Assembly (NCBI RefSeq): GCF_003402975.1
Contig: NZ_QURB01000010.1
Coordinates: 1 to 64,000 of the forward strand
Source: Brumimicrobium aurantiacum
Lineage (GTDB): Bacteria; Bacteroidota; Bacteroidia; Flavobacteriales_D; Crocinitomicaceae
DNA length: 64,000 bases
Direction of reading: 5' to 3'
Positions 48,997-53,368 of this stretch are shown piece after piece. The notes beneath the pieces were generated by a model. That model was given only the letters and a program-made list of their open reading frames with translations, was not told the origin of the DNA and searched no databases. Made by a program: the position numbers and the translations under genes. Position 1 is the first letter of the stretch; the number at the start of each line of letters is the position of its first letter.

Positions 48997-50574
48997 ATGA
49001 ATCATCCAGGCATTTGTTCACTTTTTTGTCTACTTGTTTTTGGAGTGTTATCTGTGCAGGGACAATCTGATCACTGGCACCATTTAGATCCTGAAACCAA
49101 CGGTGTTTTAGGAGTGAGTAAGTATAGAGCTTATGAATTATTAAAAGACAAAACTCCAGACACTGTAATTGTAGCTGTGGTAGATAATGGAGTAGAATTA
49201 TCCCATGATGATTTACAAGGTGTGATTTGGGTAAATCCAAATGAAATTCCCGATAATGGAATCGATGATGATCAAAACGGTTATGTTGATGATATTCATG
49301 GTTGGAATTTTTTAGGAAACGAAAAAGGGGAAAACCTTAAAAATGAAACAACAGGACTAACTCGTCTTTATGCTCAACTTCATCAAAAATATAAGAATAC
49401 TGCTAAAGAAGAGCTCCCTAAGAATCAACATCAGGAATATGAATTGTATTTAAAGGTAAAGACAGATTACTTGTCAAAAGTCAAAGAAAGGGAACAAAGT
49501 ATAGTCAATTTAAAACAGCTTTTAATTGAGTTTAACTATGCAGATCAAACCATTAAAGAAAATCTTGGCAATGAAAAATACACCAGAACGGAGCTTGAGA
49601 AAAGTAAAATTAGAAATACTGATTTTACCGCTTCACGAAACTTTATGCTTTACATGTTTGATAATAATATTTCTAAATCGATGATAGAGAAGGAATTGAA
49701 AACCAATGTAAATGCCTTAAAAACAAGGTTAAATCCTGATTTTAAGAATAGGGAGAATATCGTAGGAGACAATCCAGATGATCTAGAAGATACTGATTAT
49801 GGTAACAATATGCTTGATGTTCGAGGTCCATATCACGGAACGGGTGTAGCAAGTATTATCGGCGCTTTGAATAATGATTTTGGTGTTGATGGTCTTGCTA
49901 AACATGTCAAATTAATGATTTTAAGGGTTGTTCCTAATGGAGACGAACGTGATAAGGACATTGCTTTGGCATTCAGATATGCAGTTCAGAATGGAGCAGA
50001 CATAATAAGTTGTAGCTTTGCCAAAAAGTATGCGCTACATCATGATTTTGTTCAGTTGGCAATTGAAGAAGCTGAAAAAGAAGGCGTGTTAATTGTCAAT
50101 GCATCAGGAAATTCTTCTGAAAATATAGATGAGGTTATAAGTTATCCCACAGGTTATAAACTAAATGGGGAAAAAGCCCAAAATTATATGGTTGTCGGAG
50201 CTTCTAGAGCACAGGATGACACAAATTTAGTAGCTTCTTTTTCTAATTATGGACGAGAAAATGTTGATGTCTTTGCCCCAGGATTTAACATCGCTACATG
50301 CGTTTTAAAGAACGGATATGGTATGTCAAGTGGTACAAGTGATGCTTCTCCAATTGTAGCGGGAATAGCAGCAGTTTTAAAATCCTATTATTCTCATTTA
50401 ACAGCCAGTCAATTGAAGGAAATCATCATTAGATCGGTGTATATTCCAAAAACAGAAAAGGTTGTTCAACCTGGAGGAGAAGTGTTGGTTGATTTTAATT
50501 CGTTGAGTGTATCGGGTGGAATTGCTAATTTGTATCGCGCTGTTCAATTGGTTGAGAAAGAGTATCTAAAATAG
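48997..50574 (+). CDS. Subtilisin-family (S8) serine protease with long helical insertion
   Basis: The 525-residue protein has a signal-like N-terminus (GICSLFCLLVFGVLSVQGQ). The catalytic triad is visible: D63 in VVDNGVELSHDD, H280 in GPYHGTGVASIIGA and S448 in SGTSDASP, with the oxyanion Asn in NASGNSS. Between Asp and His lies an unusually long charged insertion of about 170 residues (about 105-270) that is predicted to be largely helical. The fold without the insertion matches family S8. There is no C-terminal T9SS domain, so it may act in the periplasm. The 214-base gap to pyc holds a divergent promoter. Confidence 0.9.
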   Translation: MNHPGICSLFCLLVFGVLSVQGQSDHWHHLDPETNGVLGVSKYRAYELLKDKTPDTVIVAVVDNGVELSHDDLQGVIWVNPNEIPDNGIDDDQNGYVDDIHGWNFLGNEKGENLKNETTGLTRLYAQLHQKYKNTAKEELPKNQHQEYELYLKVKTDYLSKVKEREQSIVNLKQLLIEFNYADQTIKENLGNEKYTRTELEKSKIRNTDFTASRNFMLYMFDNNISKSMIEKELKTNVNALKTRLNPDFKNRENIVGDNPDDLEDTDYGNNMLDVRGPYHGTGVASIIGALNNDFGVDGLAKHVKLMILRVVPNGDERDKDIALAFRYAVQNGADIISCSFAKKYALHHDFVQLAIEEAEKEGVLIVNASGNSSENIDEVISYPTGYKLNGEKAQNYMVVGASRAQDDTNLVASFSNYGRENVDVFAPGFNIATCVLKNGYGMSSGTSDASPIVAGIAAVLKSYYSHLTASQLKEIIIRSVYIPKTEKVVQPGGEVLVDFNSLSVSGGIANLYRAVQLVEKEYLK

Positions 50575-50620
50575 GTTTGAGGGTTTTTGAATTGGAATTT
50601 TCTAAAAAATAATGTATCTT

Positions 50621-50667
50621 TTTCTCTATTTCTAGGTCTACTAAATGAACCATAAAATATAGAGAAA
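50621..50667 (+). promoter_or_regulatory. Leader inverted repeat reaching the start codon of the Cys-rich peptide
   Basis: TTTCTCTAT (50621-50629) and ATAGAGAAA (50659-50667) are perfect nine-base arms with a 29-base loop. The right arm includes the A of the ATG of the 37-residue peptide. If both arms are transcribed, the hairpin could mask the start codon or ribosome-binding region and so control translation. Confidence 0.5.
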
Positions 50668-50780
50668 TGAATAATTGTAAGTGTATCAATTGCGAATGTA
50701 AAAAATGTAATTGCGGAAATTGCCTCGAAAATCAATGTCCTTGTACTAAATGCGAGTGTTCTAAATGTGATTGCTGTTAA
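50667..50780 (+). CDS. Metallothionein-like 37-residue Cys-rich peptide
   Basis: The peptide has 14 cysteines in 37 residues, at positions 4, 6, 9, 11, 14, 16, 19, 24, 26, 29, 31, 34, 36 and 37. Six are CxC pairs (4-6, 9-11, 14-16, 24-26, 29-31, 34-36). The regular CxCxxCxC rhythm, with no aromatic residue and no His, is what a metallothionein looks like, and the two halves (4-19 and 24-37) could form two metal-thiolate clusters. It has no signal peptide, so it is cytoplasmic. I know of no bacterial family with this exact pattern. It is followed by a strong terminator and then by a SigZ-like sigma factor. It may bind zinc, copper or cadmium, which I infer from composition only. Confidence 0.75.
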   Translation: MNNCKCINCECKKCNCGNCLENQCPCTKCECSKCDCC

Positions 50781-50790
50781 ATATTAATAA

Positions 50791-50822
50791 GGAGGTCGAT
50801 TGATAAAATCGGCCTCTTTTTG
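50791..50822 (+). terminator. Intrinsic terminator between the Cys-rich peptide and the sigma factor
   Basis: A ten-base-pair stem (GAGGTCGATT 50792-50801 with AATCGGCCTC 50807-50816, one G-T wobble, five-base loop) precedes TTTTT. It ends the peptide transcript 12 bases before the sigma factor ATG, so the sigma factor depends on read-through or on a promoter inside the gap. Confidence 0.85.
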
Positions 50823-50832
50823 ATGAAGGATT

Positions 50833-51357
50833 ATGGAAACACAAAAGGTATGGATCGATTTAAATGAAGAGTTGTATTTTTTCATCTTGAAAAAGGTGAA
50901 GAACAAATCTATAGCAAACGACGTACTTCAAAATACTTTTTATAAAATACATAAAAGTATTGCTCAATTGAAGGATGAAAAGAAATTAAGAAGTTGGGCC
51001 TTTCAAATAGCGCGTAATGAAATAATCAATTTCTTTAACCAGGAAAAGGTTTACGAAATGAAGACCGATTGGAATAGAGTAGAAGATGAAGCTTTCTTTA
51101 CTGATGTATGCTGTTTCGATAAATTTATTGAAGAATTACCAAAGAAGTACCGGGATAGCATTGAATTGATTTATGTTAAAGGCAAGAAACAACAAGAGGC
51201 TGCGGATGAATTAGAGATTAGTTTAACCAATGTTAAAGCACGTGTCAGAAGAGCCAAAGAAATGCTCAAATCGAAACTCAATGAATGTTGTAAATACGAG
51301 TATGATGAGCAAGGAAACTTAACTGGTGAATCTAATTGTGCTGCGTGTAATCAATGA
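50833..51357 (+). CDS. SigZ-like ECF sigma factor with Cys-rich C-terminus
   Basis: The 174-residue protein has sigma region 2 (about residues 10-65: YFFILKKVKNKSIANDVLQNTFYKIHKSI) and region 4 (about 105-150: ELPKKYRDSIELIYVKGKKQQEAADELEISLTNVKARVRRAKEML). The C-terminus adds a tail with a CC pair, a D...G spacer and CAAC before the end. CC also occurs at about residue 95. Cysteines at such positions are rare in ECF factors and suggest direct sensing of metal or redox state. No anti-sigma gene is adjacent. The metallothionein-like gene just upstream supports a metal-response role, as inference. Confidence 0.85.
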   Translation: METQKVWIDLNEELYFFILKKVKNKSIANDVLQNTFYKIHKSIAQLKDEKKLRSWAFQIARNEIINFFNQEKVYEMKTDWNRVEDEAFFTDVCCFDKFIEELPKKYRDSIELIYVKGKKQQEAADELEISLTNVKARVRRAKEMLKSKLNECCKYEYDEQGNLTGESNCAACNQ

Positions 51358-51469: not shown

Positions 51470-53368
51470 ATGAAGAAACTTTTATTGATATCATTGGTTT
51501 TGCCGCTTGTTCATGCAAATGTTATAGCACAAAGTCCTGAAGATAGAGCCCGAATAATCGCGTTAACAGATACAGTATCCTTAAATAAAAAAGCAAAGGA
51601 ATGGAATGCTAGATTTGAAAATGGATTGACAATTTCAAAAAAACTTGATATTCCAAAACAAATAATTTCAACCAATAACCAGAGGGCTTATCTAGCAGGA
51701 TTTGATTTTGAAGGTAGACCTGTTTACGATACTGATGATAATTTAGACTTGGCTTTTTCAAGTCGTATTGATAGAATTTGGTCAGGTGGTTCAAGTGGCC
51801 TCAATCTAGATGGATCAGGCATAGAAATTGGTCATTGGGAAGCAGGTGGTCTAGCTTTAATTTCACATCAAGAATACAATGGTCGTGTAACACATGCTGA
51901 AAACGAAACAGTGACGAGTCATGCTACACATACCGCAGGAACGATGATAGGAACAGGAATAGAATCTGATGCAAGAGGAATTGCTTCAAGTGCGACAATT
52001 ATTTCTCGAAGAAGTAACAATGACGAGGCTGAAATGGCTGCTTTTGGGGCTGCAGGAGGAATCGTTTCAAATCATTCATATAGTTCTGGAAATCCTAATG
52101 GAGACCTAACAAAATATGGACTTTACAATTACCACTCCGAAGATTGGGATGAAATAGCCTACGATGCTCCATATTTAACCATTTGTAAATCGGCAGGAAA
52201 TAATAGAAATGATGGCGTAAATTCAGGGGATAACGGATATGACTTGATGTACACAACAGCAGCTTCTAAAAATGTTATTACAATTGGAGCAGTTAATGAT
52301 GTGCCGAATTATATAAACCCTCAATCTGTTATACAATCTTCTTTTACAAATTGGGGACCGACAGATGATTGGAGAATAAAACCAGATATAACTGCCAATG
52401 GAGTTTCAGTTTATTCAGCGGATAATGCCAATGACACAGATTATTCAACAAAAAGTGGTACCTCAATGTCTGCTCCCGCAGTTACTGGTGCTGTTACATT
52501 GTTACAAGAACATTATTATAACAATCAAGGATTTTACATGAAATCAGCAACAGTTAGAGCATTGTTGCAAGGAACTACCGATGAGGCAGGAGCAAATGAT
52601 GGCCCGGATTTTCAAAGTGGTTGGGGATTAATGAATGCAGAAAGAGCTGCTGAAGTAATTACCAATATGGGCATTTCATCAGAACTGAATGAACTTTCAT
52701 TAGCCGATAATGAATCATACTCAACATTGATTATCACTGAAGGTGGAGAGCCATTAACAGCAACAATTGCTTGGACAGACCCTGCGGGAACTCCGGTTAC
52801 AAGTGGAGGAGTTGATGATCAAACTCTAATTCTTGTCAATGATTTAGATATTAGAATTACCAATGCAGCGGGTACAGAGATTTATGAACCTTGGGTGTTA
52901 ACGCCTAACTCAACTTCTGATAACTTTACTGATGCAGCAACAAAAGGTGATAATTACAGAGATAATTTTGAAAGAATTGATGTAGATTTTATGCCACAAG
53001 GAATCTACACTGTTTCAGTAACGCATAAAAATAACCTTGTCAACGGTTTTCAGGATTTTTCATTAATGATTAATGGAGCCAGAATAAGTTCTTTATCAAC
53101 GGATGATTTTCCTCAGAAGGATTTAGCATTTGTAGTTTATCCTAATCCTTCAAGTAATGGATTGTTTAATGTTAATATTCCGAATGAAGTAAAAGGAACT
53201 GAGTTTAAAGTAGAAGTCATAGATTTATTAGGAAGAACGAATAAAAGTGAAGTCTTTAACGAGAATCAATTTAGTCTTGATCTTACTAATATGAATGGAG
53301 GTATATTTATTTTAAAAATTCAAGGGAATGGGAAAATGCACCAAGAACTCATTCGAATTAAAAAGTAA
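51470..53368 (+). CDS. S8-family secreted protease with T9SS sorting domain; catalytic Asp replaced by Glu
   Basis: The 632-residue protein has a signal peptide (MKKLLLISLVLPLVHANVIA). The S8 domain has GIEIGHWEAGGLALISHQEYNGRV (about residues 117-140), TSHATHTAGTMIG (His 151) and KSGTSMSAPAVTGAV (Ser). In normal T9SS subtilases the first motif reads WDGG with the catalytic Asp; here residue 124 is Glu. A C-terminal P-domain-like beta-sandwich (about 405-545) and a T9SS type A domain (VVYPNPSSNGLFNVNIP, GIFILKIQGNG) follow. Glu could still act with His, but activity is uncertain. A candidate promoter TTTG-N16-AAATTTTG lies at 51412-51439. Confidence 0.85.
   Translation: MKKLLLISLVLPLVHANVIAQSPEDRARIIALTDTVSLNKKAKEWNARFENGLTISKKLDIPKQIISTNNQRAYLAGFDFEGRPVYDTDDNLDLAFSSRIDRIWSGGSSGLNLDGSGIEIGHWEAGGLALISHQEYNGRVTHAENETVTSHATHTAGTMIGTGIESDARGIASSATIISRRSNNDEAEMAAFGAAGGIVSNHSYSSGNPNGDLTKYGLYNYHSEDWDEIAYDAPYLTICKSAGNNRNDGVNSGDNGYDLMYTTAASKNVITIGAVNDVPNYINPQSVIQSSFTNWGPTDDWRIKPDITANGVSVYSADNANDTDYSTKSGTSMSAPAVTGAVTLLQEHYYNNQGFYMKSATVRALLQGTTDEAGANDGPDFQSGWGLMNAERAAEVITNMGISSELNELSLADNESYSTLIITEGGEPLTATIAWTDPAGTPVTSGGVDDQTLILVNDLDIRITNAAGTEIYEPWVLTPNSTSDNFTDAATKGDNYRDNFERIDVDFMPQGIYTVSVTHKNNLVNGFQDFSLMINGARISSLSTDDFPQKDLAFVVYPNPSSNGLFNVNIPNEVKGTEFKVEVIDLLGRTNKSEVFNENQFSLDLTNMNGGIFILKIQGNGKMHQELIRIKK

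What the first reader, a model, noticed from the sequence alone, without database searches (positions are those of the whole stretch)
50667..50780. Unlisted 37-residue metallothionein-like peptide
It has 14 cysteines in 37 residues, six CxC motifs, a CxCxxCxC rhythm and no aromatic residue. It has its own leader hairpin and terminator. It falls below usual gene-calling length, so it is probably missed in annotations. I know of no described bacterial metallothionein with this pattern.
Basis: partly seen in the sequence, partly recalled or inferred. Interest (0 to 1): 0.85.

Follow-up and report, generated by a model that had tools for sequence, protein, structure and literature searches.

The report
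Metallothionein-like peptide under SigZ-like sigma
A tiny cysteine-packed protein is a real, conserved gene, probably switched on by the cysteine-tailed sigma factor encoded beside it, to soak up a toxic metal or arsenic inside the cell.

Summary
The 37-aa, 14-Cys ORF at 50667-50780 is real and is a gene: across 30 homologues all 14 Cys codons mix TGT and TGC, and pN/pS is 0.23. It is half of a two-gene unit. The next gene (50833-51357) is a SigZ-like ECF sigma factor with a Cys pair in its linker and a Cys tail. Of 26 closest sigma loci, 25 have the same peptide upstream; the exception has a cation-efflux gene there behind the same promoter. An ECF-type promoter (strict TGTATCYTTTT-N12-GTCT in 24, relaxed in 31 of 34 peptide+sigma loci) sits 26-29 nt before the peptide ATG and occurs once in the home genome. 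Related sigma factors elsewhere carry TGCRTCYTTTT-N10-12-GTCT; of 20 motif targets tested, 13 are ArsM and 4 ArsI/CadI above cut-off. Best reading: a metal(loid)-activated sigma factor drives a thiol-rich sequestering peptide; the regulator is conserved, the effector varies. Metal binding and the inducing metal are untested. The leader hairpin is not supported; the terminator is.

The parts
50613..50641 (+). ECF-type promoter: -35 TGTATC(TTTTT), 12 nt, -10 GTCTAC; the only match of the strict and of the widened motif in the 3.42 Mb home genome
   Evidence: relaxed form in 31 of 34 peptide+sigma loci at 26-29 nt before the ATG
50667..50780 (+). gene for the 37-aa, 14-Cys metallothionein-like peptide
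50789..50821 (+). intrinsic-terminator-like hairpin and T-run between peptide and sigma gene; probably lets only part of the transcripts reach the sigma gene
50833..51357 (+). SigZ-like ECF sigma factor (174 aa), next gene on the same strand
   Evidence: (TIGR02959 144.8 bits against cut-off 168.65)
51109..51114 (+). Cys93-Cys94 pair in the linker between sigma regions 2 and 4
   Evidence: CC in 33 of 33 sigma rows with the type A peptide, 0 of 13 type B, 2 of 59 without peptide; numbering counted from the translation
51286..51348 (+). C-terminal Cys tail of the sigma factor, CC-x15-C-x2-C (Cys152, 153, 169, 172), predicted beta-hairpin then short helix
   Evidence: (tail pLDDT about 58-69)

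Best explanation
The peptide is a cytoplasmic thiol-rich sequestering peptide (works like a metallothionein) and the main effector of a small self-regulated operon. Proposed steps: (1) a soft metal or metalloid, with As(III), Cd(II) or Zn(II) as leading candidates, binds the Cys pair in the linker and the CC...CxxC tail of the SigZ-like sigma factor (inferred). (2) The loaded sigma recognises TGTATCYTTTT-N12-GTCT, its promoter in this genome (the promoter is shown by conservation; sigma binding is inferred). (3) Transcription yields much peptide mRNA, and the terminator-like hairpin lets fewer transcripts continue into the sigma gene (hairpin shown, ratio inferred). (4) The peptide, with 14 thiols, binds the metal and so both protects the cell and removes the inducing signal (inferred). 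Related promoters stand before ArsM, ArsI/CadI, other Cys peptides or a cation-efflux gene in relatives, so the regulator is conserved and the effector is exchanged.
For: Real gene under selection: 30 genes, pN/pS 0.23, pN below pS in 434 of 435 pairs, TGT/TGC mixed at all 14 Cys columns. Partnership: among 80 sigma loci, small Cys-rich ORFs lie within 400 bp of sigma in 29 loci, against 0 in 495 kb of farther flank. In the starred 31-row clade of the sigma tree, 30 have this peptide and one (L048) has a PF01545 cation-efflux gene behind the same motif. One peptide gene per genome in 27 of 28 genomes, none in L048's genome. Promoter: strict form in 24 and relaxed in 31 of 34 peptide+sigma loci; one site in the home genome. 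The widened motif has 59 sites in 51 of 80 loci (605 kb), 57 on the sigma strand; 20 dinucleotide shuffles gave mean 0.05 and the reversed pattern 0. Metal link: of 20 motif targets handed to NCBIfam 13 are ArsM and 4 ArsI/CadI above cut-off; a ZIP transporter gene lies next to sigma in G004 and to a sigma-less peptide in G207 (Pfam; G001's neighbour looks alike by eye); a cation-efflux gene follows sigma on the same strand in L029. Cys tail in 46 of 46 peptide-bearing rows; the 10 rows without tail have no peptide. A sigma with linker CXC and a C-terminal Cys domain that is metal-activated is precedented by CorE (PMC8999054, PMC3107203, passages).
Against: No metal binding, transcript or induction data. 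Of six peptide-HMM-positive genomes in the class sample (own included) three (G113, G294, G207) have no sigma beside the peptide, none at E<=1e-20 in the genome and no motif; in G113 the contig ends about 500 bp downstream. The motif is absent at L005 and L020/L054, which have both genes. With 11-13 nt spacing allowed, five unrelated sites appear in 59 genomes, as many as genomes hit by the reversed control; in 28 clade genomes the control hit 2 against 32 sites. ArsM/ArsI targets belong to other sigma branches; only 8 of 32 genomes of the window's sigma clade have an ArsM above cut-off, each on a contig without a listed motif site, and the home genome has none at E<=1e-40. Two annotated Priestia SigZ plasmids show no arsenic gene within 4 kb. 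ZIP and CDF neighbours point to zinc or cadmium rather than arsenic. Linker CC and peptide both follow one clade, so their link is not many independent events. The model's tail is low-confidence and no distances were read.
Confidence: 0.72

Rival explanations
1. The peptide is mainly a regulator of the sigma factor: a metal-dependent anti-sigma or metal-buffering partner that sets the sigma's switch point, with protection a side effect.
For: Tight pairing of peptide and sigma, a single promoter site in the home genome so that no other target gene is known there, and shared Cys chemistry.
Against: The peptide is replaced by a cation-efflux gene behind the same promoter in L048, and related promoters stand before ArsM/ArsI in sister branches, as for an effector; peptide-like genes also occur without sigma; several unlike Cys peptides fill the same place.
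Confidence: 0.13
2. The peptide is a zinc or copper store/chaperone for normal metabolism rather than a detoxification peptide.
For: ZIP transporter neighbours (Pfam in L018 and L112; L019 by eye) and cation-efflux genes in L048 and L029; all-Cys, His-free CxC clusters suit Cu(I) (general knowledge).
Against: Patchy presence (6 of 395 class genomes by HMM), which suits an accessory stress function; arsenic-detoxification targets of related sigma factors.
Confidence: 0.1
3. The peptide is a secreted or modified natural product (for instance a cysteine-rich bacteriocin or RiPP precursor).
For: Small, Cys-rich, under its own promoter; two subtilase genes flank the unit in the window.
Against: No leader or cleavage region, the Cys array starts at residue 4 and fills the peptide; no dominant neighbour family in a tally of 103 neighbours (top 25 of 111 families shown); no subtilase in the roughly 1.5 kb shown on each side of the same-genus homologues.
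Confidence: 0.03
4. Chance open reading frame.
For: Very short ORF; no library match.
Against: Conserved length, 14 Cys, promoter, terminator and partner across many genera; chance of the Cys content about 1e-12.
Confidence: 0.01

Closest known systems
Bacterial metallothioneins SmtA/BmtA (Pfam Metallothio_Pro) and mycobacterial MymT (names and features recalled, no call)
   Same: Small, Cys-rich, no enzymatic domain; presumed thiolate metal cluster
   Different: No Pfam match; no His; regular CxCxx repeats; linked to a sigma factor, whereas smtA is recalled to be controlled by the SmtB repressor and mymT by a copper repressor
CorE / CorE2 metal-dependent ECF sigma factors of Myxococcus xanthus
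   Same: ECF sigma with Cys motif in the sigma2-sigma4 linker and a C-terminal Cys-rich extension (PMC8999054, PMC3107203, passages)
   Different: SigZ-like, linker CC rather than CXC, tail of 4 Cys in 21 residues rather than six Cys in a 38-residue domain; neighbour is a metallothionein-like peptide; not shown to bind metal
SigZ (TIGR02959, NF007215)
   Same: Closest curated family (144.8 and 146.9 bits); similar Cys tail; sister proteins L063, L069 and L060 pass both cut-offs
   Different: Window protein is below both cut-offs; extra linker Cys pair; -35 TGTATC instead of TGCRTC
Yeast Ace1-Cup1 (recalled, no call)
   Same: Cys-rich metal-sensing activator turning on a small metallothionein
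   Different: Unrelated proteins; eukaryotic activator rather than a sigma factor
Arsenic resistance genes arsM and arsI/cadI
   Same: The related sigma-linked promoter motif precedes such genes in other phyla
   Different: Here the effector is a peptide; no arsM match in the home genome at E<=1e-40

Membership tests
Metallothionein in the general sense | Small protein, very high Cys with CxC motifs, few or no aromatic residues | tested here: met
   14 of 37 Cys, six CxC, no aromatic; in 22 aligned sequences 11 Cys columns are invariant and 3 more are at 90% or above
Metallothionein in the general sense | Binds several metal ions through thiolates | not testable with these tools
   needs purified peptide
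Prokaryotic metallothionein family of Pfam | Match to a Pfam or NCBIfam model | tested here: not met
   0 families up to E 1
SigZ equivalog (TIGR02959 / NF007215) | Score above curated cut-off | tested here: not met
   144.8 against 168.65 and 146.9 against 212; relatives L063, L069, L060 pass both and L057 passes TIGR02959 only
CorE-like ECF sigma factors | CXC motif in the sigma2-sigma4 linker | tested here: not met
   the linker has adjacent CC, not CXC
CorE-like ECF sigma factors | C-terminal Cys-rich domain of about 38 residues with six Cys | tested here: not met
   tail CC-x15-C-x2-C, four Cys
CorE-like ECF sigma factors | Metal-dependent transcription | not testable with these tools
   needs reporter assay
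Autoregulated ECF sigma operon | Conserved ECF-type promoter before the operon | tested here: met
   relaxed form in 31 of 34 peptide+sigma loci
Autoregulated ECF sigma operon | The sigma factor itself recognises that promoter | not testable with these tools
   inferred from co-occurrence and from the related motif at sister sigma loci

The most novel reading that the evidence does not exclude
SigZ and its relatives form a cross-phylum, sigma-factor-based response to arsenite or other thiophilic metal(loid)s, with a shared promoter TGYRTCYTTTT-N10-12-GTCT and exchangeable effectors: ArsM, ArsI/CadI, cation efflux, or, in Bacteroidota, several unlike tiny Cys-rich peptides. The window's peptide would be a genetically encoded metallo- or arseno-thionein run by its own metal-sensing sigma factor, a bacterial counterpart of Ace1-Cup1.
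Probability: 0.45. Interest if true: 0.85.

Novelty: new variant of a known kind. Interest (0 to 1): 0.74.

Why it matters
It would give a function, a promoter and effectors to a widespread sigma-factor family for which the searches made here found no described regulon. It would put a metallothionein-like gene under a dedicated sigma switch instead of a repressor, and it points to a class of genes of about 25-60 residues that gene callers may skip. It makes the inducing signal of SigZ-like factors directly testable, because the promoter sequence and candidate effectors are now named.

Tried and rejected
Leader hairpin: rejected. Sigma-70 promoter scan: 3 sites against 4.8 in shuffles, uninformative. 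Rfam over 50400-51000: no family. Anti-phage defence: no PADLOC match for peptide or sigma. Conserved third gene: a Pfam tally over 103 neighbours (up to two each side of 27 loci) shows no dominant family; top family 5 of 103, 25 of 111 families shown (A4 is not a true alignment and served only to scan its members). Further regulon members in the clade: 25 of 28 genomes have the form GTATCYTTTT-N12-GTCT, 32 places, reversed control 2. Eight places lie away from the sigma locus: five inside a long ORF (L157, L162, L167, L169, L171), three unclear (L159, L165, L166). Plasmid carriage: only two Priestia SigZ records at E<=1e-20, no Cys peptide annotated within 4 kb; a relaxed motif lies there upstream of sigZ on the other strand, facing the aldo/keto reductase gene. 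Literature: SigZ with ECF sigma factor and metallothionein, 0 papers; SigZ with arsenic, 3 papers, off topic by title and abstract start; ECF, metallothionein and cysteine-rich, 4 listed, not read; SigZ searches (1 listed; 8; 2), of which only passages of PMC12194929 were read; metallothionein searches (2 listed; 15 of 2,760 listed, broad terms; 0), not read further. Of PMC8999054 and PMC3107203 passages were read. The library lacks most subscription papers, so absence in print is only as wide as these searches.

Rows dropped or limits: 7 of 112 sigma loci were not parsed by the script (L018, L121, L122, L123, L127, L130, L131); by eye L018 has the type A peptide and L123 and L130 have other Cys peptides. 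L024's peptide lies beyond 400 bp and was counted as none. In one search, 30 of 37 genes were used (L004, L005, L020, L044, L054, L111, L112 left out for length or register). L054 and L020 carry identical peptides and may be one genome in two collections; L052 and L053 are near-copies; so counts are not independent events. One structure job was run and no fold search.

Full report
1. The observation. The ORF at 50667-50780 on the + strand encodes 37 residues with 14 Cys, six CxC and no aromatic residue. The Cys content is far beyond chance (about 1e-12 with the window's TGY frequency). It is built of repeating CxCxx units, visible also as a direct repeat with 30-nt spacing. No family in Pfam, NCBIfam or PADLOC and no PDB sequence matches it.

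2. It is a conserved gene. In 59 genomes (own included) the peptide is found at 77-81% identity in three same-genus genomes and 64% in one of the same order; the other matches have E of 0.1 or more. An alignment of 22 peptides keeps 11 Cys columns invariant and three more at 90% or above. Over 30 of 37 homologous genes, pS is 0.87 and pN 0.20, pN is below pS in 434 of 435 pairs, and each of the 14 Cys columns uses both TGT and TGC. So the amino-acid pattern is selected, not the DNA.

3. It has a partner. The next gene (50833-51357) is an ECF sigma factor closest to SigZ but under the curated cut-offs. The same sigma was sought in the 59 genomes: 12 places in 11 genomes, and 11 of 12 have a Cys-rich ORF of 32-61 residues within 470 bp, upstream or downstream. 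The one scan of the genome collection kept 80 of 455 sigma loci, from Bacteroidota and other phyla. Within 400 bp of sigma 29 of 80 loci have a small Cys-rich ORF; in the remaining 495 kb of flank there is none. In a tree of 104 sigma proteins (105 of 112 loci parsed), the window's sigma falls in a starred clade of 31 rows: 30 have this peptide upstream and one does not. Elsewhere in the 105 loci 13 have unlike Cys peptides and 59 (L048 included) none. In 395 genomes of the class, own included, the peptide profile hits 6 and the sigma hits 20; in three of the six the peptide stands without a sigma beside it.

4. The promoter. Upstream of the peptide, 31 of 34 peptide+sigma loci hold GTATCYTTT-N13-[GA]TCT, 24 of them the strict TGTATCYTTTT-N12-GTCT, 26-29 nt before the ATG; three sigma-less peptide genes lack it (sequences). 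This has the form of an ECF promoter. The home genome has exactly one match on both strands. In the 59 genomes, with 11-13 nt allowed, the 12-nt spacing occurs only in the four same-genus genomes that have peptide and sigma; five other genomes have the pattern with another spacing, and the reversed control also hits five. In 28 genomes of the clade 25 have a site, 32 in all, 24 of them at the sigma locus; reversed control 2.

5. The exception. Zunongwangia pacifica (L048) has the sigma and the promoter but no peptide match in its genome. Behind the promoter lies a gene for a 209-aa cation-efflux protein (PF01545, 41.2 bits against cut-off 26.6) ending in CCCD, then sigma. In L029 (Roseivirga) a cation-efflux gene follows sigma on the same strand.

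6. The wider family. Other loci show a close variant, TGCRTCYTTTT-N10-12-GTCT, before sigma and in several cases separately before the Cys peptide. Over the 80 loci the widened motif occurs 59 times, 57 on the sigma strand, in 51 loci; 20 dinucleotide shuffles gave a mean of 0.05 and the reversed pattern 0. It is present in 31 of 51 peptide-less loci and absent in 20. I handed 20 target genes to NCBIfam, chosen mostly because they looked ArsM- or ArsI-like: 13 are arsenite methyltransferases above cut-off, one is a short ArsM below cut-off (L081), 4 are ArsI/CadI above cut-off, 2 are something else (L058, L077). The remaining targets (sigma itself, MATE-like transporters by eye, unclear ORFs) were not classified. 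The sigma factors of two such loci, L063 and L069, pass both SigZ cut-offs. Genomes of the window's sigma clade mostly lack ArsM: 8 of 32 have one above cut-off, each on a contig without a listed motif site, and the home genome has none at E<=1e-40. Two annotated Priestia SigZ plasmids have no arsenic gene within 4 kb.

7. Anatomy of the sigma factor. All 33 type A rows have a CC pair in the linker between regions 2 and 4, against 0 of 13 type B and 2 of 59 others; all 46 peptide-bearing rows have the CC...C tail, and the 10 rows without the tail have no peptide. These traits follow clades, so they are not independent events. AlphaFold2 gives mean pLDDT 79 and draws the tail as a beta-hairpin followed by a short helix, at low confidence; the likeness to a zinc knuckle is my reading. 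CorE of Myxococcus, where a linker CXC and a C-terminal Cys domain are needed for metal-dependent activity, is the working precedent (PMC8999054 and PMC3107203, passages).

8. Terminator. Between peptide and sigma genes 30 of 34 loci have a hairpin of at least 8 pairs with at least 3 G-C pairs (my count); in the window it has -20.2 kcal/mol and z -6.9. That arrangement would give much peptide and little sigma.

9. Mechanism and limits. Shown by sequence: gene, operon order, promoter, hairpin, Cys architecture, exchange of effectors. Inferred: metal binding by both proteins, activation of the sigma by metal, promoter recognition by this sigma, protection. The metal is open: related loci say arsenic; CDF and ZIP neighbours say zinc or cadmium; the peptide's chemistry suits all soft metals.

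10. Known or new. Metallothioneins and metal-sensing ECF sigma factors are both known kinds. A metallothionein-like peptide family tied to a SigZ-like sigma with its own conserved promoter, and the ArsM/ArsI link of that promoter, were not found in the searches made (listings only, apart from the passages named). I file it as a new variant of a known kind.

Noticed in passing
L055, L061, L063, L064, L065, L067, L069, L072, L076, L078, L079, L083, L084, L088, L092, L096, L101: SigZ-like sigma loci of several phyla carry the motif TGYRTCYTTTT-N10-12-GTCT before arsM or arsI/cadI genes; SigZ may be an arsenic-response sigma factor.
   Followed up: partly
L022, L023, L024, L025, L026, L057, L062, L100, L115, L116, L118, L120, L128, L132: Several unlike small Cys-rich peptides (25-61 aa) sit beside other SigZ-like sigma factors, some with their own copy of the motif.
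   Followed up: partly
L112 (G207) 1480-1611: A 43-aa, 14-Cys relative stands without sigma or motif, convergent with a ZIP zinc transporter gene.
   Followed up: no
L074, L075, L093, L095, L103, L105, L119: A branch of SigZ-like factors lacks the CC...C tail (CPNV or CPNI instead) and has no Cys peptide within 400 bp; its targets are unknown.
   Followed up: no
L076 1791, L084 7253: Proteins with Cys-rich N-termini (430 and 200 aa) follow further copies of the motif, so Cys-rich starts may be shared by products of this regulon.
   Followed up: no
window 48997-50574 and 51470-53368: Two different S8 subtilase genes flank the unit, the second with a type IX secretion sorting domain; none in the roughly 1.5 kb shown beside the same-genus homologues.
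   Followed up: partly
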